A stretch of 64,000 bases of DNA from Nigrospora sphaerica (taxonomy: Eukaryota; Ascomycota; Sordariomycetes; Amphisphaeriales; Apiosporaceae): the NCBI GenBank assembly GCA_018287875.1, contig JAGVVL010000009.1:3906001-3970000 (forward strand). The letters are read 5' to 3'. Below, piece after piece: positions 4,923-40,636 of the stretch (positions within the stretch are counted from its first letter, which is position 1; every line of letters begins with the position of its first letter). The position numbers were made by a program, and so were the translations under genes. The notes under the pieces are model-generated. The model saw only the letters and a list, made by a program, of their open reading frames with translations. It had not been told where the DNA came from and did not search any database.

Positions 4923-5917
4923 TCACTTCCGCCTCGCGATGCGAAGCAGGCCGAGGAGGCCGAGCCAGAAGAGGGTGATGACGGCCTTGATGGCGGCGGC
5001 GAACCAGAGGGATGGCTGGACGGCGCCGATGCTCTTGGAGAGCCAGCCGCCGGCGATGGCGCCGACGAGGGTGAGGACGAAGGCGGCGGCGCGGCGGTCG
5101 CGCTTGCCGTTGGCGCGGGCGAGCAGCTGGGGGTCGCCGAGGAGGTCGCAGAGGAGGCTCGTGATGACGACGGTGGGCACCTCGCCGACGCCGAGGCCGC
5201 GGCTGTTGACGATCTGGCCGGCCGCCTGAAAGCTGAGGAGCGCGACGATGGCGAGGTCGCGGAAGTCGGGCCGCACCGACCGCGTCGGCGACGGGTACGC
5301 GCCGTTCACCACGCTGCCCTGCACGAGCGCCGCCGCCACCGCCACGAGCAGCGTCTGCGTCAGGAACGACAGCGCCACCGTCCGCCGGAGCCGCCCGCCC
5401 CCCGTGAGCTTGTGCGCCCGCGAGAAGGCCACGCTGCCCACCCCGAAGCACCCGATCGAGCACAGCGAGTACGCCCACCCGAACGGCTTGTTGTTCTGCC
5501 CTGATGTGCCGAGCGCCACGAAGATGGTGTTTCCTGCTCGCCGGGGAAAAAGGGGCCGAGGGGTCAGCACGCAGGTCCCTCTGGCGGGTATTTGGGGGGC
5601 CGGGGACTCAGTCCTCCTTACCTGTTTGCATGGAAACGAAAGTGCCATAGGCTGCACAGAACTACTCAATATTTGTCTCGAAGCAAAAGGCCGGTCGCGG
5701 TGCGTGTGGGCCCCCATTACTGACCGTTGTATATGGTTCCGTCTGTCAGGCCGGTCACGAAACAACACACCAACAGCGGGATGTAGGCACTCCTGGTCTC
5801 GACAGCCTCCTCAAAGTGCCTCTTGACGAGCTCGAAGCGCGTGGGTGCTTTGGACGGCGTCATCCCCAGGTCCGAACCCGGGTCCTCGGGCGACTCGATC
5901 TTCTCGTCCGACGACAT
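4923..5917 (-). CDS. DUF1275 (YoaK-like) multi-pass membrane protein
   Basis: Three exons join in phase (5917-5725, 5651-5622, 5533-4923) to give 277 aa. The N-terminal 50 residues are hydrophilic; then a helix reading YIPLLVCCFVTGLTDGTIYNAYGTF runs into FVSMQTGNTIFVALGT. The G-L-T-D and S-M-Q-T-G-N motifs are the hallmark of DUF1275/YoaK proteins. Further hydrophobic segments follow (about six in all), including one with S-R-G-L-G-V-G-E-V-P-T-V-V-I-T-S, and a short RRK tail. The middle exon is only 30 bases and carries the key motif, which is why simple frame calls split the gene. The family has no settled biochemical role; transport is commonly presumed from topology. The gene shares a 2.2 kb divergent upstream region with the lyase at 8132. 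Membership of the family is confident; function is open. Confidence 0.88.
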
Positions 5918-16037: not shown

Positions 16038-17752
16038 CGTGGCGGTAGAAAAAAGTGCGGGAGAATAGAAACTAGCTTAGTACGTGAACAGCGCAGGAGT
16101 CGGTCGTATGGAACAACTTACAGCAACACACTGCAGGACAGCTGGACAAATAAGGGTCGAGAAAGCAGGACATTGCTATTGACGGCGCCGTGGATTGGAG
16201 GCTGGGCCAACCCCCTTCTCCCGCCATATGAATGCGCTGTAAACCGAAATCGACGCCAATCTATCGCGCGGTCCAGGGCTGTGTGCGCCGTTTGAATGAT
16301 GTCGGTGCGGGCTTCGCCGACGCAGAAGGGGCAGGTCCCATGATTTTTGAAACAAGAAGACTGGGCATCCTTCAAATCCACAGAGTCAAATGATATAAAC
16401 TGTCTCACACAAGCTGGCTGGGAACACGTCGGCCGAAGAGAGAGGCCCGGTCGCGCCAGCCTCCCTTAATCTACGGTTACAGGTACTTTGATGTTGCTTG
16501 GCTCTTTCTTCCCATCTAAGTATTCATCAGGCCAATTGCAGACAGCAAGTACAGCTCCCCTGATGGGGAAGGCGCAGCGCATCGAGTGTTGCCCGGCCAT
16601 CCGATTTTCCCGCCCCCTGTTCTTAGCGTGCAAATCAAGGCTGGGACAAGCCGACGCCAATGCTCACAGACCCAACCACTCCTGCTACCGCAATTTGAGA
16701 TGGGAACCTTTTTTTTGACTGTTAGTGTGGCGAATTTTTCAGATGGTACCCTTAAATGCACTGCCAAGTGCACATGTCACTGTCGCGTTCACGTGAGGCT
16801 TTAGACTCGAGGAATTCCGGCAAATGAATGCCAGTTCTCTTTTGTCGACCTGCTTTTCAAAATCTAGCTGGCATTCAAGGTACAGAACCGTGGACTACGC
16901 ATCAGAAGTAAGCTATCCAGATGATGTTTACATTCGCTTCTTCTCAAATATCGTGTAAGCTCTCGCGGCCGATCCCAGTCCAGCACGGCCGAGCCGATCT
17001 GAAGAACTTTATCCCATCATGACCCCAAATCCTCATCCACCGGGTTGGTAAACAGCCCATCAATACCTTTGCCTGACACTTAACCATATGTGAAAAGGCT
17101 GGTGATGGTGGACCCGGCCCAATTGTCATCACAGGATAATGACGCGTTGAGAGCTCCGCCCATCCCCTCGATGCCGTCTTTCGAGGTAGCTGTCTATCAA
17201 AATATCTAGTCGTACTCGCCTTGGCTGCATCGGCAACCACAGCTTCGGCAAACCACGTCGACACTGCAATCAGTAACCCTCCCCTTCCTCGGACAGTTAT
17301 AAAATTCCATCCCTTCGGCGGACATATTTTGTCCCGATCCATCTTCTCGTAGTTCGTGGATTTGGTCGTATTGCTGTTGTAGTAGGGGGCCAATCATCGA
17401 GGGCCTGAGACTCAAGACGCATCCGCTTCTACTTCGCAATGAAGAAATGACACATCTAGTCCTTGTGATTGGCTATGCCAAGTTTGTCATGCGAGGAAGC
17501 TGTGCCTTGGAAGATGCTCTTCGTCTTCGCCATATTCCGCGTGGCAATTTTATGGGTGTGCGGGACTCTGCTTTGGGCTTGCCGCTGACCTGGGCGCCCC
17601 GCTGGTCTCGGCATCCTCGTCTTCGCCCATGCTTTGAGCGAACACTCAATGCTTGTGTGGGTAAATAGGCTTGGGCGCATGCATGCCCGATCCTTATCCT
17701 CTGGATCGCCTTAATCGCTCTTGATGTTCGTGTTGGCAATAACTTCGCGGTA
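16038..17752. other. ABC transporter upstream region and intergenic DNA
   Basis: This is the 5' flank of the minus-strand transporter followed by mixed sequence up to the transposon. Only short frames without domains occur. No RNA gene was recognised. Confidence 0.4.
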
Positions 17753-17798
17753 AGCTAGGGGGTCGATCAAGGGACAGGCCCATCAAACCGCCACGCGT
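17753..17798 (+). repeat. left terminal inverted repeat, 46 bases
   Basis: Begins AGCTAGGGGGTCGATC and ends CCACGCGT. It is the exact reverse complement of 19640-19685. The two ends diverge immediately after this point. Confidence 0.93.
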
Positions 17799-17912
17799 CT
17801 GGCGACAGTTTAAGGTGTTTCTTTTTTGCTTCAACACCGAATATATCAACCACCTACGGTTACATTTATTTAGAAGTCATACCATTCGAATTGCCACATT
17901 CTGTTCTTTCGT

Positions 17913-19481
17913 TTGATATCTATTATTATGGATGAATTGCAGCTGGCTGCCGCTCTCCTCCAAGTCTGCCAAGGAGATTCCATCCGGTCTGTCGCCAAGC
18001 AATACAGAGTCTCTAGACACTACCTCACGTCTCGTTTCGAGTGCAAGCCTCTTAAACGCACTGCTCAAAGGCATCGTCAAGCCCTCAGTGAGGTCCAGGA
18101 GCACTGGCTAGTCCAGTGGGTGTTGCTCCAGGTCAGACTTGGCTGGGCTCCTCAGCACAACCGCTTCAAGCTCTTCGCGTAGTCAATTATCTGTCAGTCC
18201 GGCAGCAGCCACACCATCGGAGATAGGTGGCATCGCCGTTTTTTTAGGCGCTGGCCGCAGCTGAAGACCATGCTCTCAAGGGGAATGGATTTCCAGCGCG
18301 TCAACGGCGCCACACGCGAAAACATCGAGGAGTTCTTCTCGAGGCTGAACGAGGAGCGTATCCGCGATATCCCTAAGGAGCACACATGGAACTTTGACGA
18401 GGTTGGAGCTCAGATCGGCCTTGGAGACTGCCCTTTTGTTATCGAACTATCTGCTCTCACGAAGGTCTTCACTTTAGACATCACGAGAGGCGAGTGGACG
18501 ACGTCTCTGGAGTCTGTCTTTGCAGCTGGCCGAGCCCTGTCTCCCCTGGTTATCTTTAAGGGAAGGCAGGTCCAACAGCAATAGTTTACCACTTAATCAG
18601 ACGACGAGGACTTCGCAGACTGGCAATTTGAAGCCTCAGAGGCCAGCTGGACCTCCAATTCAATTGCCCTGCGCTGGCTAAGACAGGTGTTCTTACCACA
18701 GACTACTCTAGACGACCCCAAGCAGTGGCGCCACCTTATACTCGACGGCCATGCTAGCCACTGCAGCGAGGAGTTCATATTGGAGTGTTTTAAGGCTAAG
18801 GTCTAGCTGAACTTCCTTCCGGTACACACCTCGCAGGTCCTCCAGCCTCTAGACCTTGGCCCCTTTTCGGTGTTGAAGCGCGCGTACCGGAAACACCTTC
18901 GCTAGGCCTGCGTGTCTAGTTTAACAATGACGCCAAAGAAACCGGAGTTCCTGGAGGCCTGGAAAAAGGCTCGGAAGGAAGCCCTGACTCCAGAGCACAT
19001 TACCACAGGCTGGAAAGCGACCGGTATCTATCTAAGGGACCCCCTCAAGGCCATTAACAGCCGACTGGCAAGGCAAAGGGACCAGGATAGGCCGGAGGGG
19101 TCAACTTGGAGCGTTCTGCAGCTGCCAGAGGACCCCCTGCTGTCGGAGATGTCCGCTATGGACGTTAAGACCCTAAGGTCTTCAAGGCAGATACAGCACA
19201 TCCATCGCGAATTACATGTGGTTAACTCAGTATACAGCAATGCCACCTTACGCCAGGTCTTCAGGAAGACCGGAAAGGCCTTAGACCTTGCAAGCGCCGA
19301 GATCTCCAGCCTTAAGCATGAACGCGACCAATTGGCTGCTGCGCTGGATCTCCAGAAGCCCCAAAAACGTCGCAAGGTCCAGAAAACTGCTCAAGAGCGA
19401 TTCGTGACCATGCTAGACGTTCGTAAAGTTAAGGAGGACTTGGCGACACCTGGTGGTGAGACTGGTGCGGTCACTGCGTAG
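17913..19481 (+). pseudogene. pogo-type transposase, five in-frame stops
   Basis: One frame runs the whole length and is broken by TAG at 18180, TAG at 18582, TAA at 18594, TAG at 18804 and TAG at 18903. The N-terminus (MDELQLAAALLQVC..SVAKQYRVSRHYL) is a psq/CENP-B type helix-turn-helix for binding the element ends. The DDE domain follows with its three acidic positions: WNFDEVG, LILDGHASH and QPLDLGPFSVLKRAY. The last part from 18930 is a charged, coiled-coil-prone tail (SAEISSLKHERDQLAAALDL) ending with basic RRKVQK. Every stop is one C-to-T or G-to-A step from CAG, CAA or TGG and no TGA occurs, which fits mild RIP at CpA. There are no frameshifts, so inactivation is recent. No restored version is implied here. 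Confidence 0.88.
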
Positions 19482-19639
19482 TCGCCATCGATCGCGTCGG
19501 GAAGTTCGGTTGCAGAAAGCATTTCTGACATAGAGGAGGAGATAACAGTCTCTTTGAGCTAATCGGTCTGTCTGTATCTATTGTGGTTGTTAAGATAATT
19601 GGTTTTGTTTGCTTTAATGTTACATGGCGATGTCTTAAA

Positions 19640-19685
19640 ACGCGTGGCGGTTTGATGGGCCTGTCCCTTGATCGACCCCCTAGCT
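19640..19685 (-). repeat. right terminal inverted repeat, 46 bases
   Basis: Exact reverse complement of 17753-17798, followed by the TA duplication at 19686-19687. Confidence 0.93.
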
Positions 19686-21150
19686 TACCTCATCATAGGC
19701 TTAGGGTGTTACTGAAGTCTTGTGCGCCCCCGGAAGACCACTTTGCACTGGATCCCTCAGCAACTTCTGAAGCTACACCTGCTGCGGCCACGCCAAAGTT
19801 TCTTCGTAAGGGGCTGCGTGCAGGATACCGCGATCGATGAAACGCTTGACCTTCTGGGGCTTCAAAATTGAAGATTTTCCACAACTGGAGTCCCTTTCGG
19901 TGAGAACACTTTGCAAATATTCTGCCCCGGGGCACTGTGCACTTTCAAACCACGGAGATTTGTCACATTCGTGACGTTCTTCGTGAACTTCGTATCTTGA
20001 ATGACATCTTCACGTGATTGGACGTACTTTGATCCCTATTATGCCCAACAAGGGGTCTTGCGCCTGACACCAGATATCTATGTTTAGCCGGATTTAATAC
20101 CCCCCTCCTACAGGCCACCTTGTACAAGGTAAGTGTTCCACAGTGCCCCAGCTCCTCCCAAATGATAGATGGTCAGCGATTACGTTGCTTCTTGGGGCGG
20201 ATTACATCTTGTTAGGTGGCTTACGTTTGCAAACCATTGAGGTCCGTTGTTTGGATGGAAGGTGGCACATAGGCTGTTTATTTTCATTTCTGCTATCAGA
20301 CATCCCGGTGTGGAGTATAACCGTCGCAGTGTCGTGCTTGCACCCTCCCAAATATGGTCGGTGCTTAGTTCTCCGGAAGCATAACGGAAAATGGGAGTCG
20401 CAATGAAGACCGTATTCTAGCCAACGAGATAAATTGCCATGGAAACGCCTACGAGGTTCCCGGTGGGAGAGCTTGATGGAGGAGTGCACAACGGTGTCGC
20501 GAACCACCATCGCGTAGCATGCACCCAGTCCGTAAGGGGTGTAAGTGGAACTGTTATTGGAAAAGAGCCCCGAGCTAGTCCTAACCAGTCGCTATTCCAG
20601 TGGCTGTGTCTGGTAGCCCCATCCAGACTGCAATCATTTCCGGTGTACGACTTGGGTACTTAAGTACCTACTTCAAGTACTTATGTAGTTAAGGAAGTAT
20701 CAGTGGAAGGAAATTTCACGTGATTCAGTCAGATTGGACGGCGGCGGTTCAACGTTGGCAGCTCAAGGCAGGCGAGTGGCTAATGGAACGACTAACGGTA
20801 TTCGCACCCGGAAGCTTCGATCATGGTCGACCAAGCGTTACACGGGCAACGCTGGGTGTACTACAACTGACTGATAGATGGATTCGGGAAGTCCAGTTGT
20901 CGTCGATGGGGATGGGCCCTCGCGCGATCCCACGCAAACGTCCACTATCCATCCACTTAGGCCCGTCAGCCGCGCGCTAATATAAGCGTCCCACTCCAAC
21001 TGTAAACAGACGTCAGCCGGTAAGCCTGCTCGGCTCCCACCAGCTTGTGCTCCCTACCAAAAGCCGTCGTCGCATGCCAGCATCTGGCGCATTGTCGGCC
21101 CCTCCTCGCCTTCATCACAGCCGCGCCATCCCACCTCAGACTCGTCCAAG
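19686..21150. other. intergenic, nothing recognised
   Basis: Mixed composition without a supported gene. Around 20655-20695 there is a run of near-palindromic AAGTACTT/TTAAGTACC units. The last 200 bases are the SPC19 upstream region, with a TATA-like TAATATAAG near 20980. Confidence 0.4.
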
Positions 21151-23041: not shown

Positions 23042-24280
<1,239 letters not shown>

Positions 24281-25397
24281 TCAGCATACCGGAGCCCTGC
24301 TTTGAGAATATCCCCATCGAGGCTGAAGATAATTGCTCGAGGGTCTACATGGCTTACGAAAGGGGGCGAAGCCGCTGAGAGTAATAGTAATATACATGTT
24401 CTCAACATGCACCCTACTGCAGTTCCAATTTCGTTATGCCGAAGCAAAGTTCCTCAGAGAGAACCATGGGTCTCCGCAACCGGCCGTGTCAGATCGTCCT
24501 CTGAAGACGCGTGCCGTGCCTCGCTACTGATTCGCGGAGCCCCGCATCCTTCCCTAAGCGAGGCAATATGGCAATACGCCTGGCTGAATCTGGCAGATGG
24601 GTGACAAAACACAACGCCTCCAGCTACATAGGGCATTTCAGTGTGGCCCTGGTAGAGCTCCTGGGGCATGATTTTCCTTTTTAATACGAGTTCCTTTTGG
24701 TTTTGTCATCCACCTCCCTGGTATCGGTCTTCTTTCCCGCGCTTCATGCTGAGGACAGGCCGTCTCCATGCGCAGAAACGCATCTTCGTACTTGCGCGGC
24801 ACGGCCTTGCCCAGACTCTTCCAGTCGCCAGTGCTGAAACCTAACATTTCTTGTGTTGGTTGGTGGTGCAGAGCTAGTTGGTTAGGCCAAGGCCTGGATC
24901 AGAGGGCAAGGGCTGAGTTCCAGCCGTCGTCGGCTTGGAGTGACGGAAAGGTTTCGTCGTTTTCCACCGCTATCAGAGGCACATAAATGGGTGCAAACAG
25001 TGCAGCCACGTAGCCAGGACATGCAGCATGATTGGACCTTGGGCCAAAAACAGCTATATAGAGTTCATTCGGTCGCGCGGAAGTTCCCACGAGCGCTGCG
25101 GCTGAAGAAGGGTTCGCTGGGGTCCCGCGCGATGAGCCCCTATTGGTCGGGCGCTTTCGTTCTAGGCCCGGCAGTGAAAACGGGAGCCATGAGTGGTAAT
25201 TAGCCGTTGATTCAACATCGAGCTGCAATTGTGCCGGTCGCCCGTGATGACCTTGTGATGATACCCACTCATGGCGCTCGTTGTTCATGTATTAAAATCC
25301 GCCGTCTATCCGGCCCGTCAACCCCACGGCCCCAATTGAACTTCTGCACGCATTCCCTACTCTCTACCCATCTTCCGTTCCCAGCGACCAGAAAACT
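24281..25397. other. intergenic, nothing recognised
   Basis: 3' flank of the xylanase gene and 5' flank of the LtrA-like gene. Short frames are without domains. No RNA gene or repeat was seen. Confidence 0.4.
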
Positions 25398-27809
25398 ATG
25401 GAGCCCAGCATCATGGAGACGGAAAAGGACACGAGCCACGAGGGGGTGAACCCCATGCCCAGGCTCACAATTCTTGCAGACCCCAACCATGAAACAAGTC
25501 ATGAGCAGCGCTTTCTCCCTGTCGAGTTTGACGTATGAGAACACCGCGTGCAGTTTGTCGGCTTTTGTTCTGACAGGGCCCAGCTATTCTTCGATCTTTG
25601 GCTCGTGGCAAGCTTGCAGATTCTCGCCGAGGTAATGCACCCTCACGACCTGGCAACCCTTGTTTCATGACTGACCCAACCCAGAACAAGGATATCTCCC
25701 AGCTTGGAGATTTGAAAGAATATGTCGGATTTCTCTGGTATCATGGCCCGCATCCTTTTCTTTGCTGGCACGTCCGTGTCTGATGTGTCTTCTTGATCAC
25801 AGCATTCTCTGGTTCACATGGTTCTCCGTCAGTGTTTTTGACGTTCGCTTCATGACGGACTCCGTCTTCGAGCGCGTCATACGAAGCGTCCATTTCGGGG
25901 CCATGGTGGGCTTCATTGTGGTCCTCTCGCACTTCAAACCGTATGACCAAGTGGGCGACAAACACCACAACCCGTTTCGGACTCTATGTTTGTCTCCCTG
26001 GCTGCTTTTCCCCAGCCCCGTCGTGCTGAGTATTTTCTTCCAGGCATTATCCTCATGACCCTTCGTCTGGCCTTGGTGGTACAGTACTGCACCGTTTACA
26101 AATTCTATCGGGACCGCAAAGACAGCAAGAAGGCCTTCGCAGCCGCCGCCGTGACCCATTTCGTCGCCGCCGCCATATATGTCAGCATATCCCCTCGGTT
26201 CGACCAACTGCACAACAGCAGAGCCCATATCGTCTGGTACGTCGTGTCCGCTGTCGAAGCTCTAATCCAGCTGGGCCTGGCTTGGATGTTCGATGTTCTC
26301 GCGATCAAAGGACCCAAGCTTCCACAACGACTGGCAACTTTGACCGTTATGATTCTTGGCGAAGGCGTGGCCAAGATCGGCAAGAATATTTTCCTGATTG
26401 GAGAGAACGACGGAGAGCCGTGGAGTGAGTAAAACCGCTTTCACAGATCCAATTCGCATGCTAACCGCACTGAAGCATGGGGCACAATTGGTGTCTGTAT
26501 CTCCGCAGTAGCTTCTTCGTACATTTTGTTTTTGATGTACTTCGACTTGTTGCGAAGCCGTGGAAATCTTCAGGGGTGGCGCCAGTTGCTCTACTCGCTA
26601 GTTCACTTTCCCTTTCACGCCTCTCTTCTTCTTTACTCTATTGGATCAGCCACGTTCATTCAGTGGTGGCACGCTGTAAGCACACTGCGTTCTGTGCACG
26701 TTGTATACTTCCAGCTGACCTGCCAATACAGTACGTTACCTGGTTGCCTATCAACGACAAGCTAGGTAAAGAGTTTGATAATTCGATCATGCATGAATTG
26801 GGATCCAAAGGTTATCCCAGCATTAGTACAGCGATTTCTGAGGCTTTCAAAAACCATACCGAGCGCCTGCTAAAGAATTTCCCCTCCAAATCCGCCGAAC
26901 AGCAGAGCTCCATCGAAAGCCTATTCCGCGTCATGAGAAACATGCCCGATACTTACTGGGAGACGAACGATACTATTTTAAAGAAGCTTCGGGGGGCTAT
27001 CAAGGCATCAACTCTCAGCTCTGTTTTCATTCGTTTCGATATTGATGGATACAAAAGAGAAGACGAAACAGATGGTACCAAGCACCCGGCATCATCGGAT
27101 AACTCTACCGACTTTTCCATTGGTACTTTTGATGAGCAGCTGGCCGTTACGGAAAGGATTAGCATGCGTGCCAAGACTGTGGTATGGATTCCTATTTTCT
27201 TACACAGCCGACCATGATGCCCACCCTTCTACCTTCGCTCGATTTTGGACCGCTTGATCAACTGCGCTAACTCCTCGGTCTTTTCAGTTTGTGTATGCAT
27301 TTGTGTGTGTCGGGATGGTTTTGATGTTCATGACCGTCCTACATATACTCACCTTGAACAAATACCGTTGGATGCCGATCGACCACGTACGCATTGGGTT
27401 GTTTGTCTCGGCCAGCCTAGCTCTTGGACTCATCTCCATTACGACCCACAATGTCACTAATACATTCACGATTCCCCTCTGGTGTATGCCCGTCATCTGC
27501 GGCATAACCTTATTTCTCTTCCTCGCCACGCATCTTCAAGGGCTCCGGCTGCATCAGCAGTGTCCGCCACGACGACATGGGCTACGCCCGCTGCGACTGC
27601 GACGATCCTCTTCCATGTCAGCAGGACAGGAGAGCAAGAGCTTGTTTGAGTCGTCGATTTATCATTTCGATAGCCATGGCCAAGGGCACGACTATCGCAG
27701 CAACAGAGGGGTGGAAGCAGGCTCGCCTACCGACTACATGAGTCTGCAGAGCCCGGAGTACAATAGCCACCGCTGGTCTGGTAACGAATACGAACGCGCG
27801 TACTTTTGA
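25398..27809 (+). CDS. LtrA (low temperature requirement A) family membrane protein
   Basis: Eight exons are proposed: 25398-25525, 25577-25631, 25685-25737, 25803-25987, 26044-26424, 26476-26675, 26732-27181, 27288-27809 (about 657 aa). The family core is clear: AQLFFDLWLVASL, then FTWFSVSVFDVRFMTDSVFER, HFGAMVGFIVV, LRLALVVQYC, LTVMILGEGVAKIGKN (the conserved ILGEG motif) and SYILFLMYFD, with further hydrophobic helices in the last exon and a polar cytoplasmic tail. About ten membrane segments are seen. Biochemical function is not established for this family; fungal members are multi-pass membrane proteins of unknown cargo. Oddity: exon 1 joins in phase only with a weak GTTTGA donor (25526); the better GTATGA donor at 25533 would shift the frame. 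The gene lies just upstream of the PKS on the same strand, but 1.3 kb separates them. Confidence 0.83.
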
Positions 27810-29160
27810 TCGATTTACCCCCAAAGCGCACGGATACCTGGCTGGCGTCTGACAAAACCCCACCTTGTCTGCGACAGAGCATTTCAAAGGCTCATACATA
27901 TCACCCAAATGAAATTCACCTTTGGCATTCTTGACAACCGTCAAACTGTAATCATACCATTGATACGTGGAACACTGTGACTTTGGAAAGATCTTGGTGC
28001 GCCGCCCTGGAAAAGTTGCAAACTCCTCATGTCGAGAGCTTTTCCGGAACTCGTACATTTTGTCGCTTAGAGGTCCATTTACTTCGCAAGCATCAGTGGG
28101 GAGGGCGGTGGAACGTCCAGCAAACAAGACACGGCTCGCCCGCCAATGGGAGATCGGGTGCGGTGGTGATGCGCTCAGTCAAAGACGCATTTCTAGCGTA
28201 CCGGTGTTGAGCTTTTGACTCAAAGGTCCCTGTTGCGTTTGGCCCGCCAACCTGATTTAAGCATGTCTTAGTTACTGGCAAACTGGCTATACAGCTGGCT
28301 TGTCTTGAATTCTATTTTCCAGCCAATCTTGGTCCCGAGCCACGTCTTTGTGGCGTTCGTTATGGCCCGAAGATGTTTTCATCTAGATAAACTGGCAAGG
28401 CCGGCCAGCTGCGTCGTTGTCTTGCCCATTCATAGTGGGCTGGCGGGATTTCGGAGAAAAGTGGTCTCGCCTTGTCAAGATCTATGGTGTGTCATTTGTC
28501 ATCAGATCTCCCCCGATCCAGCCGATTAAATCCAAATTCCAGATGGCTAGCAGCGCTGGACAGTCCGTAGGCACCCCGTTCTGCCGTTCCTCAGAACCAA
28601 AAGTACATAGCAGCATGGTGGCTGTTGCCTATGCACACCCCCAAAATCTCGGTACAGCGAGGGACCGTCACAGGCGCCTCAGACAAAAAGTGAGATTGGG
28701 TGTCAATGCGTAAGTACTTGAGCGGGCACAAAGGCCGTTAGAATATCAGCTCGCCAATTGCGGCACCGAAAGCTACCGCTACCGAAGTACATAATTTGAG
28801 AACACAGGCACAACTTTATGAGACTTGTCTTAGACCCCGAATCCGGCACAGCGGGTCAATGCGCCCGGGTTCCTGTGATTGCATTGTTGGCCCTGAGATA
28901 CGTCTGGCCACGGAAGATCCGAGAAAGCCCGTCCGATCACCCACACAAAATCATCTGGTCTCTGGGATCTCCACCGTATCCCGCGCTACTGCCACTCGTT
29001 TTGCACGTACTAACTACCCAAACCGTGTCGCGAGCCCACGCAAGCTCATCAGCGGCCTTTTCCATTGTTTACCCACTTTCTCCCGCCTTTCAGGCTTCTC
29101 ACCTTTCTACCCTCATGACTTTGCAATTATTCTTGAATTCTTAATGTGGCGTCCCATGAA
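27810..29160. promoter_or_regulatory. PKS upstream region
   Basis: 1.35 kb between the LtrA-like gene and the PKS start. No supported gene. Short frames on both strands lack domains. No clear repeated operator was recognised. Confidence 0.4.
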
Positions 29161-32100
29161 ATGGCGAACACGGTCATCCTTTTCGGCGATCAAACAGTCT
29201 ACACATCATCATGCTTCCACTCACTGCAGCATCAGGCTCGACGTTCAACGTTTCTTCAAAGATTCGTAACGGATGCCACCCTGTTAGTGAAAAGAGAAGT
29301 CCAGACCTTGGACCCGGTCTCTCGGGGTCGTTTCTATGATTTCAGTGATTTTGTCGACCTGGCGGACCAATTCAACACCATAGGGCATCCGGATGACTTG
29401 GTTGCCACCGTGCTAATGACCGTTGCTCAGCTTGGGGAGCTCATACTGTGAGCCCAACCATCCTTGCTTTTCCCAGTTTCTACTGACACGACGACGCTTC
29501 CAGTCAGGCAGAGGATGATGCATCAATTCTCAACAATGACGAGACGGTTGTGTTGGGCCTGGGTACTGGGGTGTTCTCCGCAGCCGTATGCGCATATTCC
29601 AGAGGGCTGAATAGCATGCTTCATCTGTGTTTAAAGGCCGTTTCCTTGGCCTTTCGTTTCGCCGTCGAGTCGGGACGCCGATCCCAGGCAATTGAGGACA
29701 GCCCTGGGTACTGGGCATATTCAGTCGTCAACATCACCACCCAAGACTTGGAACGCATCATCGACGACTTTCACACGGAAAAGGTGAGCACGGAAGTGGC
29801 GAGAAACTTGAGAAAAGCAACATGGGATGGGGATTGACATAATTCCAGTGCACTCCTCTGCATAGACACGCCTATCTAAGTGTCGTCGCCGATACGTGGG
29901 CAACAATCAGCGGGCCGCCAACCACACTGGATGAACTTTTTGCCTTCTCTGAGGTCCTCGACAGCGCGCCCAAACTGAGGCTTCCTTTCGGCGCGGCATC
30001 CCATGCGCCTCATCTGCCTCCGCTGAACGTAGACGCTCTGTTGGACGCAAGCGGAATTAGTGACGACATCATCGGCTCGCGCTCCCGCTTGTTTTCGACC
30101 AGTACATGCACACCACATAGAGGACCGTCGATCAGAGACGTCTTGCGAGATGCTCTTGAAGATGTTGCGAGTAGGCCCCTCTCGTTGAGCGATACCTTGC
30201 AAGGTGTCATTGCTGCTTTGGGCTATGGCCACGAAGAAATACGCCTGCTGCCCATTGGGCCTCTGGGCCACACGAATATGGTGCAACGCACACTGCAGCG
30301 TGCCGGGCTGCCCGTGAACGTTTGCAAACCATCACGCCGGAAACAAGTACTACATGAATCACCAGGGCTGCCGGACATTGGAGCCGGGGATAACATCGCC
30401 ATTGTCGGCATGTCGGGTCGTTTCCCCGGCAGCGAAAGCGTGGGCGAGTTCTGGCAATCTCTTCTCGACCAGAAAGCCTTTCACACCCGAGTACGTGATG
30501 GCTTCCTTGGGCTGCACTGAAATGCCTGACTTGTTGCTGATGATCTATCCGCCCAGACATCCGGGCCACACTTCGAACTCGATGGACATCCTGATTTATT
30601 CGAACGCATACAGAACTTACCCAAGGACTCCTACGGATGTTTCCTCGAGCGACCGGGGGTTTTCGATCACCGCATGTTTAACGTTTCAACCCAAGAGGCC
30701 TTAAAGATGGACCCCTTACAGCGCTTGTCATTGATGTGCGCCTACGAGGCCCTGGAGATGGCCGGCTACAGCCCGGACGGGACCCTATCGACACGGACAG
30801 CCCGTATCGCCACCTTTTTCGGACAGGCACGTGATGGCCACCATATAAACGCCGAAGAGAGTTCGTGTGTGTACTTCTTGCCGGCCTCGCAGCGCGCTTT
30901 TGTGCCCGGAAGGCTGAACAATCAGTTCGGATGGGGAGGGCCGACCTATAGTGTCGACACAGCCTGTACCTCGAGCTTGTCTGCCGTCTTGCTGGCCATG
31001 ACGAGTTTGACTTCGGGACAGTGCGACATGGCAGTTGCAGGCGGTGCCTCGATTTTGTCCAATCCACCTTGTGAGTTCAGCACCCATCTATCCATAGGAC
31101 ATGGCCAGAAGTAGAAGTCCAACCTTGCAAGACTAATCACCACATCAGTCAGCGGAAACAAAGACTCCTGCTTCTCACCTACAGAATCCTATAGGAACTT
31201 GCCAGGTTCAGCAGAGGGCTGCTGCCGCGGGGAAGGCGTGGGCGTCATCATCATGAAACGCTACGAAGACGCCGTGGCTGACAATGACAACTTGCTCGCC
31301 GTTATCCGTGGCGCAGTGCGCAACTCATCAGGAAGCTCTCCCTCACGCTCGCATCCGAGTAGCTCCATGCAGTGCTCCTTATACCGCGACCTGCTGCACC
31401 AGACCAATGTCGACCCCCAGAACATTGGTTATGTCGAGATGCACGGCACCGCTACTCAAGCGAATGACATTGCCGAGGTAACAAGTCTAGCCTATGTCTT
31501 CAGTGACGACAGGCTTCCGAGTTGTCCGCTTTACATGGGCGCCGTCAAGGCCAACGTTGGGCATGGCGGTGCAGCTGCTGGCATGGCGTCGCTGATCAAA
31601 TCCGTCATGATGCTCAGAGAACACATCATTCCGGGACAGCCAATATCTCGTCCGGAGTCTCTAGCAACCAGTCATAGCTACCCGCCGTTACATCACATGG
31701 GTGTGCAGGTTGTGCAGCAGCAGCGGGAGTTCAGGGCGCCGGAGTCGGGCGACCGACGGAAGGTTTTGATCAACAATTTTGATGCCGCTGTAAGTCGATG
31801 CCTCCAAAAACAAACTCTAACAAAAAGCCGAAGCTGAGAATTTTTAGGGTGGCAATGTGAGTATGCTACTTGAAGAACATGTCGCAGTATTACCTTCCGC
31901 AAACTGCCCGGCAAAAGTCGCTGGGTATAGAGATCACCACATAGTCACCATCTCTGCGCACACGTCCAGGGCACTCATAGCTAATAAGGAGGCTATGCTC
32001 GCACACCTTGTCAAATCGCCAAGTATTTCTCTCAAGGACCTCGCATACACGACGACGGTCCGGCGCATGCACCATCAGTACCGCAGGGCTTATATTGCGA

Positions 32101-35100
32101 AGTCGCTGGCCGGACTGATGAACGACCTGGAACGGGATAGAGATGTACCCATGCCCCTAAAAATTGAGTCCAGCGCGCAACCGAGTATCGTTTTCACGTT
32201 TACAGGCCACGGTCACGGCTGCCGCATCATGGGTATGAAGCTTTACCACACCTCAGCCAGCTTCCGCAAATCCATCGATTCCTATCACCGTTTATGTGAG
32301 TCGTACCGGTTTGACTCCTTCCTGGGTCTCATTACTGGCGACCTACCGTCGAATGCGAACCCAACTACTGTCCAGACACAGCTCGCCACTGTTTGTCTTG
32401 AGCTCGCTCTCGTCGAACTCTGGAAGGACTGGGGGGTCCGGCCTAGTCTCGTCATTGGCCACGGTCTTGGAGAATATGCCGCCCTGTGCGCCGCCGGCGT
32501 GCTTTCAGTGAACGATACATTGTATCTGGTTGGCACCAGCGCCAGCCTGCTACAGTTGAGTGCACATACGGGAACGCACGCCATGTTGACTCTCAGTATG
32601 GGTCTCGATGACGCACTATCGGAACTTCAGGACTTCCCGTCGTGCGAGATCGCGTGTGTCAACACTCCTACTACGACTGTCGTCAGCGGTCCCATCGAAG
32701 CCATTGTCGGGCTGAAGACGCTACTCAAGAGCGAAGGCCACGATGCCGCGCGGCTGGCCACGCCGTATGCCTTCCACAGCGAACAGATCGATCCGATACT
32801 TGGAGACGTTTTGTTGCTGGGGCAGCAAATCCAGTTCGCAAAGCCTAGTATACCGGTGGCTTCGACACTAAGCGGCACCGTTGTGACGGAAGATGGTCTT
32901 TTCAATATCGAATATTTGCTTCGCCAGGCAAGAGATCCGGTCGACTTTGCCGGTGCTCTGGAAGGCTTGCATTCGTCGGGAATGGTCGACGAAAGCACCC
33001 ATTGGGTAGAATGTGGACCGCATCCCGAGAATCTCAGCTTCGTGAAGGATACGATTGATGTGCACCAGTCAAAGATACTCCCTTCGTTGCAGGCCGGTCG
33101 AGATGACTGGGATGTCATGTCCTCAGCAGCAGCAACACTCCACGCGGAAGTTGGCGTGATCGACTGGACGCGTTTCCATCAAGAGAACGCCAGTGACGTG
33201 AAGCTTCTTGAACTCCCATCCTATTGCTTCGACCTCGAGGACTTCGGGACGTCCTCCGGAGACCATGAAAGGGGCAGTGAGCTGGGCAGGGAGTTAGCAG
33301 GAAAGAAACAAGGGGGCCAAAGAAAGGGGATCGGAAACTTGCTGACAAGTTCGCTTCAGACCCTGGAGGAGCAAGAAGTTTCCGAAACATACGCCACCTG
33401 GGTCTTTTCTTCGGCCGTATCAGAGCCCGAGCTCGCCGCCGCCATCAGAGGCCAGGCCACGGACGGCTACGCTGTCTGCCCTGTGGGCGTATTCCTTGAC
33501 ATGGCCCTGAGCGCCGCGCGGTACGGGTTTCGGAGTATGAACCCCGACGCCAAGATACCCAGCTTCGCGGCGTATGACATGGAGATCACGCAGCCGTTTG
33601 TTATGTCGGGCACTGAAGTTGACAACCAGACCACCATCATAGTAACAGCCACGCGAGCGGGGATGTCTGGGGAAACCACGGCGATCTCCTTCGCATCCAC
33701 ACAAGACGGGGAGAGACGAGTCCATGGCACATGCACCGTAGGCGTCGCCTCTAGCAGCCTGTGGGCCCAGAGCTGGCAGAAGACAGGGCCTCTGGTCAGC
33801 CTGGCCAGGCAGGGACTTCTTGCCGCCGTGGGGAGACACTTGGGTCACAGGCTGTCCAAAGCCATCGTTTACAAGCTCTTTTCGCACGTTGTGAATTACA
33901 GTGCCGCTTACCAAACACTGGAGGACGTTATCGTGTCGGAGGACTTCACCCAGGGGTTCGCACAAGTGCGGATCGGCGCCCATACGTCAGGTTACTTCAT
34001 GCATAGCCCCTACGGGACCGACGGACTCAGCCATCTCGCCAGCTTCATCGCCAACTGCGATCCCGCGAAGACCGATACTGATGTCTGGGTGCCCACGGGA
34101 TTCAGGAGGCTGCATATAGCGGAAGCGCTCTGCTCCACCAAGACGTACACGGCTTTCGTTTCCTTCGGGGGACCCTGCCAGACCGCCGCAACCGCTCTGT
34201 GCGACGCCTACCTGTTCGACGGTACCGAGTTGCTGGCCACGGCGAGTGACTTCAAGTTCACCAAGATGGACAGGGCGCACTTCGGAGCCCTCGCTCGGGC
34301 GCCGGCTCCCGAGTTTCTTCAGAGCCTAGTAGACGCGCAGGTTTGCATGGGAGACAGAGCCATGCTAGCCGTCTCCCACCGCCCCTTGGTGCTCGACATC
34401 AAGCGGGCGTCGCCGCGTACTCTATACGTTCGCCGAAAGCACGCAGAAGAGCCCGAGAGTGAGCCGTCATTACTCGATTTGGAGACCCAGGCCAAGTCGC
34501 CGAGTGAAACTGAGAGCCAGACCGTGATCGAAACCCTCTATTCGCCAGGGGCCGAAAGCAATCCCAAGTCGCCCTCGGTATCTTCGTCAGTGACCGGACC
34601 GTCCGGCTACATGACGCCGTCGTCATCGCTCGGGCTCCCCAGCCCTATCGACGCGACGAAGGAGGAGCTCGCCCCGTCTGGGCTATCGCCGCCGCCGCCG
34701 CCCCGGCACAGCAGCCACGCGGTGATGCTGCAGGGGCAGCAACAGGCGTCCGAGACGCCGCTGTTCCTGCTTGCGGATGGCACGGGCCGCGCGGCGGCGT
34801 ATGCGCAGCTGCCGGGGCTGCCGCGGGGGCGGCCCGTGTACGGGCTCGAGTCGCCGTTCCTGCACGAGCCGGGGGCACTGGCGGGCCGTGGCGGCGTCGA
34901 GGCCGTCGCCGCGCTGCACGCCGCCGAGGTCCGCCGTGTGCAGCCGCGGGGGCCGTACCTGCTCGGCGGCTGGGCCGCGGGCGCCGCCTTTGCCTACGAG
35001 GTCGCCCGCTGCCTGCTCGGGGCCGGCGAGCCCGTTGGAGGCCTCGTCCTCGTTGACGTCGACGTCGGGCGCCCGCCCGCCGCGGCGTCGACGGCCGGCC

Positions 35101-35552
35101 TCGACCGCGGCTCACTCCGCCTCAAGGAGCACCGCGTCGCCGTCTGTTGCGCCCTGGCCCACTACCAACCCCAGCCCATGAGCCCCGGGAAGCGGCCGCA
35201 GAAGACGTACTTGATCTGGGCGCGGCGTAACCCGTCGGGGTCCGCGGGGGAGAGTGACGGCGCGGGCCAGACTCTTGGAGGGTCGGCGCCAGCCAAGAGT
35301 GAGACCAACGACTGGGAATTGGTCGGCAAGTCAGGGGAAAGTTACGAATTGCAGGTGACCCGGGCCAGGATGATGAGCAAGGCCAGCACGCCGAAGGCTT
35401 CCTTCGGACCCCAGGGGTGGGAGGCACTGGTGGGCGCGGATCTGAATACAAGGGTCGTCGACGCCGATGCCTTCTTGACGACGGCACCGCCACACGCGGC
35501 TGAAACGGACGGGCTGATCCGAGATGTGGTCGAGGAGTGTTGTTCTTCATGA
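29161..35552 (+). CDS. non-reducing polyketide synthase with lost catalytic residues and no ACP (SAT-KS-MAT-PT-TE)
   Basis: Six exons (29161-29447, 29504-29783, 29849-30490, 30557-31070, 31149-31789, 31848-35552) join in phase to 2022 aa. SAT (about 1-370): GLGTG at 114-118, so Gly116 stands where GxCxG has Cys; H241 is present. KS (about 385-790): FPGSE, DTAC540TSS, H673GTATQ and NVGH713, so the triad is intact. MAT (about 880-1200): GHG994LGEYAAL instead of GHSLG; the FTGQG motif reads FTGHG; H1098 is present. PT (about 1290-1590): GQ1324ATDG replaces the catalytic-His motif; Asp1513 is present. A Ser/Pro-rich linker (about 1650-1740) follows with no D-S-L ACP motif. TE (about 1745-2022): GGWA1831AG replaces GGWSAG, and the late His site reads DADA1996F. 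An intact relative would make an aromatic polyketide from malonyl-CoA; this one probably cannot do so alone. Confidence 0.93.
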
Positions 35553-37260
35553 AAGGGCCGTAATCTTTCGAATTGGTTCTCCCAGAATCTGCCGGTGTAA
35601 TGCTTTTATAAGAGCCCTCTCTTAACTCTAAACTTAGAGCGGTAGCTAGCAAACAACGGCTCGCTTCGAGGAAAGGTTTCTGAAATACACTTACAGCTCT
35701 AGGGATGCATGATGGGATTTCCGAAAATTCCGCATGGTGGAAAATGGTGCTCTCGGCTGCTTGCCAGGGTTCGCACGGCAATGCATACCAAATAAGTTAT
35801 AGATGCTTCATGCCACCACGGACGTTTATGGAATCACAGGGTAGAAGTACGGCTCAAGTTGTGTTCCGTCACCCTACCCGCCTTGAGTCACTTGGGGCTA
35901 TTTGCAAAAACTCCAAAGAAATGACTCTCTATATGAACATTTCCATTTGGTATAGGCCTGTACCGGGAAAGATTGGACGGTGCAATTGAGGGTGATCATC
36001 AACACATAGACTCTTAGTCTTGCAGCAAGTACAATACCGTGACACGGGGTGACAGTGATGACCCAATGACTTGGTCACGAACTTCAGTGACAAGGTGCCT
36101 TAAGCTTTCCGACTGGGTCCGGAGAAGCGAAATTCCTCGATCAGGGTCGGCGGCGGCTGGCTTCGTGTCTTGAGTGGTGATGGGGACGATTAGCGAGACC
36201 CGTGATACTAATCCTCTACGGTAGACGAGGACGCGAAGGGTGGTATCGACAGCGTCTTGGCTCCCACTGAAACAAGGGTTTGTTCGAATCGTTCTACGTT
36301 CCTTCGCGTCATGGAGGATTCTAGGCCAATAACATATCTGTTGCCCTTGTCCTCGTCCTCTCTGGGTCTTCTCGGCATTTGAGATCGCCGCTTGTCCTCG
36401 GTTGCCGGTTCGCCTTCATTCAATGGCCAACTCACCTCCTGGTATCGTCAAGAAAAGCAATAGACAAGCCTGGCCGATCGGGCGACGGGGCTCCGCAGAT
36501 ATGCCGAGTTGAACGGAGCTTGGCTCGCACGGGGAGGAGGATTGTTCTTTAACCGAGTCGGTTACGCCTAGTAACGACGAGAAGGTGAAGCATCGCTTGT
36601 TGCCATAGGATCTGGCGATGCTACCTTGTTCTATGTGCGAGACGGGCTACCACTGGCTTGCCTTCATTTTCGCGGGAATGTGGCTGGCAGGACCAAGTAA
36701 ATAGACCTGTACTAGCGTACGTGCGTACATGTTAGGGGGGCTTTTAGAGGGGCAGCTGCTGCCCCAGTCCCTGCCACTTTTCTACACAACCCCACCCGCC
36801 CAGTCGAACCGTTCCCACCGCCGCCTCTGCTGGTATCCATTGCAGCATAAGCCTTCTATTTCTCTGATTTCTGACTGGTGATGGATGAGAGAATATGATA
36901 GGTGGCCGATCAGTAGACCATATACAAATCGCCGTAACCCGATGCGACGAAAACGCGGGTTTGGAGTGGCCTCGGCGGGCTTGGCGATAGTTGCTGACAC
37001 TACGGCGCCCAGGCCCCAAGAAAAGCAGCCTTGGCGACTGGATTGCGACATTTTCCTTGACAATCCCAGCGCCTGCGTCTGGCGGTAAAGGCTTCCATTC
37101 TACTCTTCTAGAAGGCAGCTGAATCAGACATCGTCATGACGGCATGCCGATAAGATGGCCGGTTGACATTCACCGTAACTTGCGGATCGCATTTGCCGCG
37201 GCTCTTTACGCCTCACCGTCGCTAGCAACTCCGCCAGAACGATACTTGGCCGCGTCCGAC
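35553..37260. other. intergenic, nothing recognised
   Basis: 3' flank of the PKS, mixed sequence, then the 5' flank of the permease gene. An ATG at 37144 is in frame with the permease and could extend it by 39 residues; the 37261 ATG is preferred because it starts right before the conserved N-terminus. No tailoring-enzyme or regulator gene is visible here. Confidence 0.45.
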
Positions 37261-39563
37261 ATGAACGCCGACGAGCGTCCGCCGCCCCCCGACATCAGCC
37301 GCATCGGCGATTGGCAATCCATCCTCACTCTCATCGTCTTCATCATCACAAGTGGGTTGCGCTTCCTCACTGATGCTTCTTGCATAGCTCTCGCTCACCC
37401 ACAACCCAGATGTGATCGTAAGCTTCCCGTTCCACATTCCCATTCCTGTGCCGGGAACGCTGTGGAATGCCTTCGTCGGGGCACTGCGCAAGCTGCGAAT
37501 CATCCCGCCGCGCGATCAGCAAGACCACTACCAAGATGCCGAGCGCTGGAAGATCTTACGCTTTCATGTGAGCACCGTTATGGCGCCGCTATACGCCTGT
37601 CTTTTCCTGCTGGCCACTCTGGCCATCGGCCGGCGTGAGGTCTACGACGGTCCGTCGGCTCCCCCACTCTCGTGCGTTCCTATGTTGACAACAGCAACAA
37701 GGCGTCGTTGGCGACAGCAATATTGAGCCGTACGATGTCATGCTCTTCTTCATCACGCTGGCTTATGTCGCCATTTCCATCGATGCTTCAGGTAGGTGGC
37801 CCGCCCTCTCGTATCTGCCGTGCCACGCTCCGCCTGCTGATACGAACGCCTAGGCCTACTAAGGTACCTCGCATTCCGTGTCCTTCAAAAGGGCGGTGGC
37901 CACGGCCGGCGGCTTTACCTATACCTGTATTGGTTCTTCTTTGCCTTGGGCACAGCCATCGGCAATGACCCCATCATACTATCTGGTGGGTCGACTCCTT
38001 CTGAGCCGCCTTGTAAGCCGAGCCATTTCCGCTGAATTAGTCTCACCTACAGGAACGGCATTTCTGGCCTACATGATCCGGGGTTCGAGCAATATCGAGT
38101 CGGCACGGGCCTGGGTGTTCTCTCAGTTCGCCGTGGCCAACATCAGCTCGGCGATTCTAGTGTCGTCGAACCCGACAAACCTGGTGCTAGCGGGGGCCTT
38201 CCAGATTAAGTTTATCGACTACACGGCCAACATCGTCGTGCCCGTGCTGTTCACGGCGGCGATCCTATGCCCGTGTCTGCTGTTCCTCGTTTTCCGTAGC
38301 GAGAAGCTCGTGCCGCGCACCATCGGTATACAGCAGTTGCCCGATGCTGAGAAGGACCGCGACCCCGTTAACCCTAACGTGCCCTTCGCGGGCGCCGGCG
38401 AGGACCGTAGCGCCGTATCCGAGATCCTGAACCCCTTCCTCGACCGCCGCCACGCCGCCGTCAGCTGCACCATCATGATCGCCGCTCTCGTTTCCATTCT
38501 GCTCATCAACGCCATCACCGCTAGTCGCGGCGGCCACCCGACGCCTGTGCTGTTCGTCTCGGTCCCCGCCGCAGTCCTATGCTTCGCCTGCGACCTCTTC
38601 TCGGGCTGGCGCCACCGTGCCGCGACGCGTGCTCTGGCCACCCGCGGCCGCCTGCTGGCCGAACGCGCTGAGACCGAGCAGGAACTGCGCCGCCGTGCTG
38701 CCGCCGCCGGCGGTGACCATAGCAGCCCTACGACGGCGGTCGGGCGCGGCTCGTCCTCCGAGGGCCCTGACGGCGCGCGTCTCTTTGAGAAGTTACCCGT
38801 CTCCGACGCGACCGGCGAGGAAATGGCTGCCGCCGTCACGCGCGAGCTGGACCGGCGAAAGACGGTAGAGGCCGCACAGCCCGCCACGCTGGTCTCCAAG
38901 GCCCGCGAGGCGCACGCCTGGTGGCGCGAAACCTTCCCCGCCGCCTCCACCGTCCTCTCCCGCCTGCCGTTCCCGCTGGTGCCTTTTGCCTTTTCCATGT
39001 TCGTTCTCGTCCAGGGATTGGTGTCCAAGGGCTGGGTGTCCGTCTTCGGCTACGGCTGGGACGCGTGGGTGGAACGAACGGGCGTTGTGGGCGCTGTGTC
39101 CGGCATGGCGTTCCTGGCCGTTGTTTTATGTAATGTAAGTCTTCGTCCCCTCACCTCTTGAACGATCATTATCGTCTATACCAGCTTCGATCGCCCGAGC
39201 CTAACACTTTGCCGCCAGTTTACGGGCACTAACATCGGTACCACAATCCTGCTCTGCCGCATTATACAGGCCTGGGAGCAGATCCTGGCCGCCGAGGACC
39301 GGACCGTCAGCGACCGGACCTTCTGGGGCACCGTCTATAGCATGGCGCTGGGCGTCAACTTCGGCGCATTCAGCTCCGTGCTGTGCGCGTCGCTGGCCGG
39401 CCTGCTTTGGCACAGCATTCTGCTCTCCAAGGGCGTCGTCGTGCGCCGCCTCGAATTTCTCCGCGTCAACGCCCCAATCATCGGCATTGCCACCGCCGTC
39501 GGCTGCTCCGTCCTCGTCGGCGAGATCTACATCATGCGCACCGACGAGCCCTACAACCCATAA
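37261..39563 (+). CDS. ArsB/NhaD-type anion or ion permease
   Basis: Six exons (37261-37351, 37410-37649, 37702-37791, 37854-37985, 38053-39134, 39219-39563) join in phase to 659 aa. The protein has about ten to twelve hydrophobic segments: WQSILTLIVFIITNVIVSFPFHIP, VMLFFITLAYVAISIDASG, YWFFFALGTAIGNDPIILSGTAFLAY, and the half-site SSNPTNLVLAGAF typical of the ion-transporter clan. A long polar cytoplasmic loop (about residues 340-450) is Ala/Arg/Glu-rich. The second half repeats the T-N motif in CNFTGTNIGTTILLCR. Duplicated [S/T]NPTN-like and GTN motifs at discontinuous helices are the signature of the ArsB/NhaD/CitM superfamily. Substrate (arsenite, Na+/H+ or an organic anion) cannot be told by eye. 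No arsenate reductase or other ars gene adjoins. Confidence 0.82.
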
Positions 39564-40393
39564 GGGCGGCGGTTCCGAGGCTGAAAGACCAGGGAACCGT
39601 GTTCGTGTCCCAGTGGCGCTTAGGCCATTATACTTCGGGCGTGGCTGGGGACGTATCAGAGTTCAGTCAAGTGGTCGTCTCAAGTTTTTTTGCTGCCCAT
39701 AGGACCGAAAGGGAGCATGGATGATGTCATGCATGGTCTGCTTAAGCATCGGATCCTAGCGTAAGTTAATATTAACCTGTGATGCCGACAGTATCCACCA
39801 ATGCCGCAGGGGTATTTAGCTTCAGTCTGAGACTCCGTAGTACAAGATTTATTGGACACTGAGTCCAGATACGCTCTCCTGTGGTACCTGCTGTCTCCAG
39901 ACCCGAAATCGTTCACTTGTACTTTAGCTACGAGGTGAAACTATCAATTGCCCTGAGGAATGCCTAGTGACTTGGGCTCTCCCATCTGGCACCTGTTCTT
40001 GGATAAGGAAAGTCCTTTTTTGTGTCACAAACAACGATGAGACCAAAGGATACGGTAAGGCAGGCAAAATTAAGGCATACCTAGAAAAAAGATGTTCTAT
40101 GGCGAAGTCCAACTCCTCCTGTCTGTCAATTCGCAATATCGGTCCCAGCTGAGCATCCATGGAGCTGCTCCGCACCCACAAAGACGTGAGTACAACGGTG
40201 AGCATCCGTACTCGAGAACAGCGAATGCCCCATGGGAAACATTCGTGATGGTGCGATCTATTCCATATCAGCCAAGGGCCCTGCGGGAAGCATGAAAAAG
40301 GCTGAAAAGAAGAGCCTGCACTACCTTGGGTGGATGGGGGTCCTGGAGCGACCCCTTCTCACGTCTATCGAAATCGCTCGAGTAAATCGCCGC
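39564..40393. other. convergent intergenic region
   Basis: Lies between the stops of the permease (+) and the LysM gene (-). No gene, repeat or RNA was recognised. Confidence 0.4.
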
Positions 40394-40636
40394 CTAGGGA
40401 CACTTCACGTAAATGGTGGTCCAGGCGGGGACGAAGTCCTTGCTCGGGAGGTTGTTCCGACGCGCAATGTCCTCAGCCGTGTCGCCCAAGTCCGCGGCGA
40501 TCTCGTCCAGGGTGTCTTTTAGGACGACCCAGTACCAACCCATACCCGGGTTCTCACGGTCGTATCGGCAGCCTCGCTTATCGGCGGCGGCGGCAAGACC
40601 GCAGAGCACGGCCAAAGCAAAGAACATGGCGCGCAT
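40394..40636 (-). CDS. tiny secreted single-LysM protein
   Basis: An intronless 80-aa frame. Residues 1-18 form a signal peptide (MRAMFFALAVLCGLAAAA). The mature 62 residues are almost entirely one LysM-like motif: W-Y-W-V-V-L-K-D-T-L-D-E-I-A-A-D-L-G, then a helix with A-E-D-I-A-R-R-N-N-L, and a closing strand T-T-I-Y-V-K-C. The D-T-L.x.I-A..L and N-N-L spacing is the LysM hallmark. Two cysteines remain in the mature form (23 and 79), one at each end, and could close the fold. LysM modules bind chitin or N-acetylglucosamine oligomers; small secreted LysM proteins in fungi often shield cell walls or suppress chitin perception by plants. That role is inference here. Flanking DNA is gene-poor. 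Confidence 0.78.
   Translation of the reverse strand: MRAMFFALAVLCGLAAAADKRGCRYDRENPGMGWYWVVLKDTLDEIAADLGDTAEDIARRNNLPSKDFVPAWTTIYVKCP

What the first reader, a model, noticed from the sequence alone, without database searches (positions are those of the whole stretch)
29161..35552. A full-length non-reducing PKS whose acyl-transfer and cyclisation sites are all substituted while the ketosynthase triad is intact
Sequence shows Gly116 (SAT), Gly994 (MAT), Gln1324 (PT) and Ala1831 (TE) at the expected nucleophile or base positions, no ACP motif, yet Cys540, His673 and His713 of KS in place and six exons joining in phase over 2022 codons. In known NR-PKS chemistry each of these residues is needed for loading, extension, folding or release. 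Loss at four sites without a single stop or frameshift is hard to get by neutral decay of a 6 kb gene. Inference: a retained pseudo-synthase (scaffold, regulator or KS-only partner working in trans with another synthase's ACP). I know of no described fungal NR-PKS with this full set of losses.
Basis: partly seen in the sequence, partly recalled or inferred. Interest (0 to 1): 0.88.

Follow-up and report, generated by a model that had tools for sequence, protein, structure and literature searches.

The report
Intact-frame, catalytically dead fungal polyketide synthase
A fungal gene for a large polyketide-making enzyme has an unbroken reading frame but has lost its carrier domain and several working residues, so on its own it probably makes no polyketide and is either kept for another, unknown job or slowly eroding.

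Summary
Six exons join in phase over 2022 codons with five canonical introns. Further losses: the AT oxyanion Gln and malonate Arg are also replaced, and the TE His probably. The interpretation needs trimming. Gly at the SAT site is usual in published clade V1/V3 enzymes, at least one of them active; natural PT losses are also published. The damaging losses are ACP, AT and TE. The KS is not specially protected: 54 of 151 columns invariant in four sibling NR-PKSs are changed in it, much as in the other domains. Neutral decay fits badly: three AT losses with no stop in 2022 codons reach P = 2e-6 at best. Best reading: an old, orphan, full-length pseudo-synthase, no longer a polyketide synthase in cis, whose frame was still selected while catalysis was lost. 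A present function, a KS-only role in trans, or late erosion cannot be separated without orthologs or transcripts; the homolog database was unavailable. Pfam scans found no tailoring gene within 5 kb on either side.

The parts
29161..29447 (+). exon 1, SAT N-terminal part
   Evidence: PF16073 5e-16; splice and phase check
29504..29783 (+). exon 2, SAT with Gly116 at the nucleophile site (29562-29564)
   Evidence: PF16073 2e-19
29849..30490 (+). exon 3, SAT C-terminal part and start of KS
30557..31070 (+). exon 4, KS with Cys540 (30965-30967) intact, Thr instead of Ser directly after it
31149..31789 (+). exon 5, KS with His673 and His713 intact, HGTA instead of HGTG
31848..35552 (+). exon 6, KS end, linker, AT, PT, ACP-less linker, TE remnant, stop; 1234 codons open
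32190..33128 (+). acyltransferase domain: GQG Gln to His, Ser site Gly994, Arg site Ser1019, His1098 kept
   Evidence: Acyl_transf_1 1.6e-38
33345..34292 (+). product template domain, His site is Gln1324, Asp1513 kept
   Evidence: TIGR04532 236.6 bits; alignment to PksA PT
34293..34709 (+). linker of about 140 residues where the ACPs of siblings L049, L050 and L052 lie; no ACP found
34710..35549 (+). thioesterase remnant, Ser site Ala1831, His site probably Ala1996, Asp1858 kept; C-terminal part poorly aligned
   Evidence: PF00975 6.4e-14 over about 100 residues

Best explanation
The gene descends from a TE-bearing SAT-KS-AT-PT-ACP-TE non-reducing polyketide synthase. The ACP was lost in frame, after which the domains that act on ACP-bound chains were free to lose catalysis: AT lost its nucleophile, oxyanion residue and malonate Arg; TE lost Ser and probably His; PT lost its His. 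Much of this happened while selection still kept the reading frame, so for at least part of that time the protein mattered for something other than making a polyketide in cis. Shown: the anatomy, the losses, the intact frame, the long branch, and no tailoring gene found nearby. Inferred: the order of events, a non-catalytic (structural or regulatory) role, and that selection still acts today.
For: Intact 2022-codon frame and five good introns. Best-case probability under neutrality of three named AT losses plus no stop is 1.8e-6, of four sites 6.9e-8. At 95% at most 68 missense changes can have built up neutrally, 33 or 21 with assumed indel rates of 0.05 or 0.1 per substitution, against root-to-tip lengths of 1.21 versus 0.44-0.63 in KS and 1.14 versus 0.41-0.73 in AT. 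Replacements at columns invariant in four siblings are milder than random single-base missense (mean BLOSUM62 -0.41 versus -0.76, P 0.003, 103 sites; by domain KS P 0.042, PT 0.048, AT 0.125, SAT part 0.58; TE left out for lack of references). AT keeps 15 of 17 columns that are invariant in the 15 other rows; the two changed are the catalytic Ser and Gln. No tailoring gene by Pfam in six frames of 24160-29160 and 35553-40540. No recent duplicate: own-genome matches are 38% identical at most, 43% in KS alone.
Against: No ortholog, transcript or protein evidence. Replacements are less conservative than in the siblings (-0.21 to -0.32 versus -0.08 to 0.74). Third-position GC is low from SAT to AT (0.57-0.64, against 0.72-0.84 in L049 domains; flanks 0.52 overall), as expected of weak selection. 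Two upstream ATGs out of frame open a short ORF that overlaps the start. The long branch may predate the losses, in which case it says nothing about them. The catalytic sites were singled out after seeing the sequence.
Confidence: 0.5

Rival explanations
1. Ordinary gene in late decay: a synthase that had tolerated SAT, PT and TE loss while still active, then lost ACP and AT recently and is now under no selection.
For: SAT and PT losses have precedents in working enzymes; low third-position GC from SAT to AT; less conservative replacements than in siblings; no pathway genes found nearby. Defective fungal PKS genes are reported in print (passages of PMC8403587).
Against: Even the three AT residues alone are hard to lose neutrally without one stop in 2022 codons (1.8e-6 at best); all five introns keep canonical splice sites.
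Confidence: 0.28
2. KS-only enzyme in trans: the KS condenses or decarboxylates chains carried on the ACP of another synthase, and the rest is a scaffold.
For: Cys, His, His and Lys of the KS kept; 26 of 30 columns invariant in 14 other KS rows kept. The KS of L053, a PKS of another class with no sign of death in its KS motifs, differs from the sibling consensus as much (65 of 168 to 90 of 203), so the divergence does not show a dead KS.
Against: Of 14 catalytic positions 7 are lost, so that none of the lost ones falls in the KS has a probability of about 0.1 by hand calculation. KS distance ratio 1.62 (1.42-1.86), not lower than AT 1.33, PT 1.50, SAT part 1.17 or TE 1.11. 54 of 151 sibling-invariant KS columns changed. 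One change directly after Cys, one three residues after the first His. No second KS or any ACP match in the window.
Confidence: 0.14
3. Gene-model or assembly artefact, for example an undetected ACP exon or a collapsed pair of genes.
For: Only one assembly is at hand and there is no cDNA.
Against: Exon 6 is one open frame from the KS end to TE, leaving little room for a missed ACP exon, and six-frame ACP searches find none; motifs were read from the DNA.
Confidence: 0.04

Closest known systems
Fungal NR-PKS of the PksA / CTB1 type (PDB 8cg4, 6fij, 3hrq, 3ils)
   Same: SAT-KS-AT-PT...TE order; PksA is the best PDB match of exon 6 (E 5e-116)
   Different: no ACP found; AT, PT and TE catalytic residues replaced
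Clade V NR-PKSs such as ACAS (passages of PMC10401856)
   Same: Gly at the SAT nucleophile
   Different: ACAS is reported active; that it keeps AT, PT and ACP and has no TE is recalled, not looked up; this gene has a TE remnant and no ACP
SorB, ClaF, MPAS with inactive PT (passages of PMC13300579)
   Same: PT His replaced
   Different: there the PT Asp is replaced too and the enzymes make products; here Asp is kept and AT and ACP are gone
Truncated or split PKS genes of Hypoxylaceae and Xylaria (passages of PMC8403587)
   Same: defective fungal PKS genes present in genomes
   Different: those lack several domains or are split over genes; this one is full length except for the ACP and is disabled by point changes

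Membership tests
Non-reducing polyketide synthase (sequence family) | SAT, KS, AT and PT domains in this order | tested here: met
   PT over the curated cut-off
Non-reducing polyketide synthase (working enzyme) | phosphopantetheine ACP | tested here: not met
Non-reducing polyketide synthase (working enzyme) | AT Gln, Ser, Arg, His (roles recalled) | tested here: not met
   only His kept
Non-reducing polyketide synthase (working enzyme) | KS Cys, His, His | tested here: met
Non-reducing polyketide synthase (working enzyme) | PT His-Asp dyad | tested here: not met
   aligned to PksA His1345 and Asp1543: Gln1324, Asp1513 (dyad numbering from PMC13300579)
Non-reducing polyketide synthase (working enzyme) | TE Ser-Asp-His, in TE-bearing enzymes | tested here: not met
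   Ser site Ala; His site Ala with weak alignment
Clade V NR-PKS | KS phylogeny in clade V | tested here: inconclusive
   no clade V reference sequence at hand; KS tree places the gene near L049 and L052 with weak support
Conserved pseudoenzyme | losses shared and frame conserved in orthologs | not testable with these tools
Ordinary pseudogene | stops, frameshifts or broken splice sites | tested here: not met

The most novel reading that the evidence does not exclude
A full-length NR-PKS converted into a maintained non-catalytic or KS-only protein, for instance one that dimerises with or regulates a working synthase of the same fungus. I know of no described case with AT, ACP and TE all disabled and the frame intact, and the titles and abstract starts listed by my seven paper searches (an open-licence library only) showed none.
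Probability: 0.35. Interest if true: 0.68.

Novelty: new variant of a known kind. Interest (0 to 1): 0.42.

Why it matters
If maintained, it would be a pseudoenzyme version of a megasynthase and a warning that KS-based genome mining counts non-synthases as pathways. It also shows that single-motif losses (SAT, PT) should not be read as death, while loss of ACP plus AT should.

Tried and rejected
Single-sequence structure predictions of AT and PT gave mean pLDDT 34.3 and 34.6 and say nothing; no fold search was run on them. The PDB search with the SAT exon found nothing, so the SAT site rests on Pfam and sibling alignments. A KS-less ACP-bearing half-synthase elsewhere in the genome (L056) was looked at as a possible partner and set aside as a probable truncated relic on another contig. 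The idea that the intact KS triad shows selection on the KS was tested and not supported. Distance ratios of fast domains may be pulled down by saturation, so the KS-over-AT difference (0.98 of bootstrap draws) is used only to say that the KS is not better protected; against PT the figure is 0.65. Catalytic versus other sibling-invariant columns outside KS: 7 of 11 against 67 of 191, Fisher 0.058, suggestive only. The four siblings used as reference are not proven enzymes: L051 itself shows no ACP and has a TAG inside its AT-PT match, and L050 aligns with Gly at the SAT site. Two scripts misfired and were redone: a wrong option and a missed donor; one motif pattern was mistyped and could match nothing.

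Full report
Setting. The window is G000:C33:3906001-3970000 of a 51.6 Mb assembly in 33 contigs. Genes in the window (PDR-type ABC transporter, GH10, GH32, Rsm22, biotin-dependent carboxylase) and the short GT..AG introns fit a filamentous fungus; the species is unknown to me.

Anatomy. Six exons join in phase to 2022 codons. Pfam and NCBIfam, given the exon frames one by one, find SAT, KS, AT, PT and TE but no ACP. The own-genome PF00550 list of 80 matches has none in the window, and the ACP region of sibling L049 finds nothing in this gene. About 140 residues of linker lie between the PT match and the TE match.

Sites. SAT Gly116, AT Gly994, PT Gln1324 and TE Ala1831 are right. PT Gln1324 aligns with PksA His1345 and Asp1513 with Asp1543 (the chain numbers differ from the published dyad, PMC13300579, by 61 at both residues, counted by hand). 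TE Ala1831 aligns with the Ser of the PksA TE motif. Added here: the AT GQG glutamine is His and the malonate Arg site is Ser1019, leaving only the AT His of four residues. In the AT alignment 15 of 15 other rows keep Gln, Ser and His; the Arg column is less constant, 12 of 15. The TE His site is probably Ala1996 but aligns weakly. The roles of AT Gln, AT Arg, SAT His, TE Asp and the TE serine are recalled, not taken from a call.

What the losses mean. SAT Gly is not diagnostic: passages of PMC10401856 say almost all clade V1/V3 enzymes have GxGxG and that ACAS is active. Sibling L050 in this genome also aligns with Gly there (its motif reads AMGCG) and L051 with Ser. PT loss occurs in SorB, ClaF and MPAS; removing the PT from SorB left the product profile unchanged with lower yield. 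The absence of ACP and the three AT changes are therefore what rule out a self-sufficient synthase.

Is the KS special? In four sibling NR-PKSs (L049-L052) 151 invariant KS columns are aligned here; 54 are changed in this gene, against 29 of 96 in AT, 15 of 30 in PT, 5 of 13 in the SAT part, and 25 of 63 in TE with only two references. Leaving out one sibling at a time, siblings change 11 of 169 to 46 of 204 KS columns, this gene 58 of 160 to 83 of 196, and L053, a PKS of another class, 65 of 168 to 90 of 203. So this KS is as far from the siblings as that of another PKS class. Root-to-tip length in the NR clade is 1.21 here against 0.44-0.63 for KS (inner supports 69 and 87, placement weak) and 1.14 against 0.41-0.73 for AT (supports 28 and 38). 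Across 14 other KS rows of several classes, 30 columns are invariant and 4 change here, one directly after the catalytic Cys and one three residues after the first His; the siblings change 0 or 1, but L054 and L055 change 4 of 35 and 4 of 34. The triad is intact, but the domain shows no extra constraint; nothing here proves the KS dead.

Is it neutral decay? With the gene's own codons a random substitution is missense 0.70 and nonsense 0.031 of the time (kappa 2). The best-case probability that three specified AT sites change and no stop appears is 1.8e-6; for four sites 6.9e-8; assumed indel rates make it smaller. At 95% no more than 68 missense changes can be neutral. The sites were named after seeing the sequence, so these figures are guides. 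Replacements at sibling-invariant columns are milder than random missense (-0.41 against -0.76) but harsher than in siblings. Third-position GC is low from SAT to AT and close to the L049 values in PT and TE. Together: weakened but not absent selection over the history of the gene.

Surroundings. Six-frame Pfam scans (E 0.001) of 24160-29160 find nothing and of 35553-40540 only an ArsB/citrate-type transporter; 16077-21070 holds a DDE_1 transposase match. No tailoring enzyme was found, so the gene looks like an orphan rather than part of a cluster; genes split by introns into short exons could have been missed.

Known ground. Defective and split fungal PKS genes are reported from Hypoxylaceae and Xylaria, with the remark in 2021 that no split fungal PKS was known to retain function (passages of PMC8403587). 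The listings of seven searches (one search showed 25 of 27 papers) showed no full-length NR-PKS with this set of losses; only three papers were opened, each by passages.

Verdict. The gene is best seen as an old pseudo-synthase whose frame outlived its chemistry. Whether it still has a job is open.

Noticed in passing
L051 (G000:C12:4376001-4385000): A second NR-PKS without a detectable ACP: SAT GLSIG, KS, AT and PT motifs normal, seems to end after PT beside a Zn2Cys6-type regulator ORF (by eye); KS 70% identical to L050, which has an ACP.
   Followed up: partly
L056 (G000:C16:265001-272000), 2188-5930: KS-less half of an NR-PKS (PT-like and ACP matches, then methyltransferase- and esterase-like frames judged by eye) with a zinc-knuckle ORF just upstream.
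   Followed up: partly
L050 (G000:C1:6329001-6338000): Sibling NR-PKS with KS, AT and ACP motifs that aligns with Gly at the SAT nucleophile column.
   Followed up: no
window 29144-29269: Two upstream ATGs (29144, 29156) open a short out-of-frame ORF across the PKS start; by eye the PKS ATG has the stronger context.
   Followed up: no
window 18492-19013: DDE_1 transposase match on the + strand.
   Followed up: no
G000:C19:60672 and C19:827429; C20:60969 and C21:52337: KS matches with the same or nearly the same scores at paired places, suggesting duplicated segments or redundant contigs.
   Followed up: no
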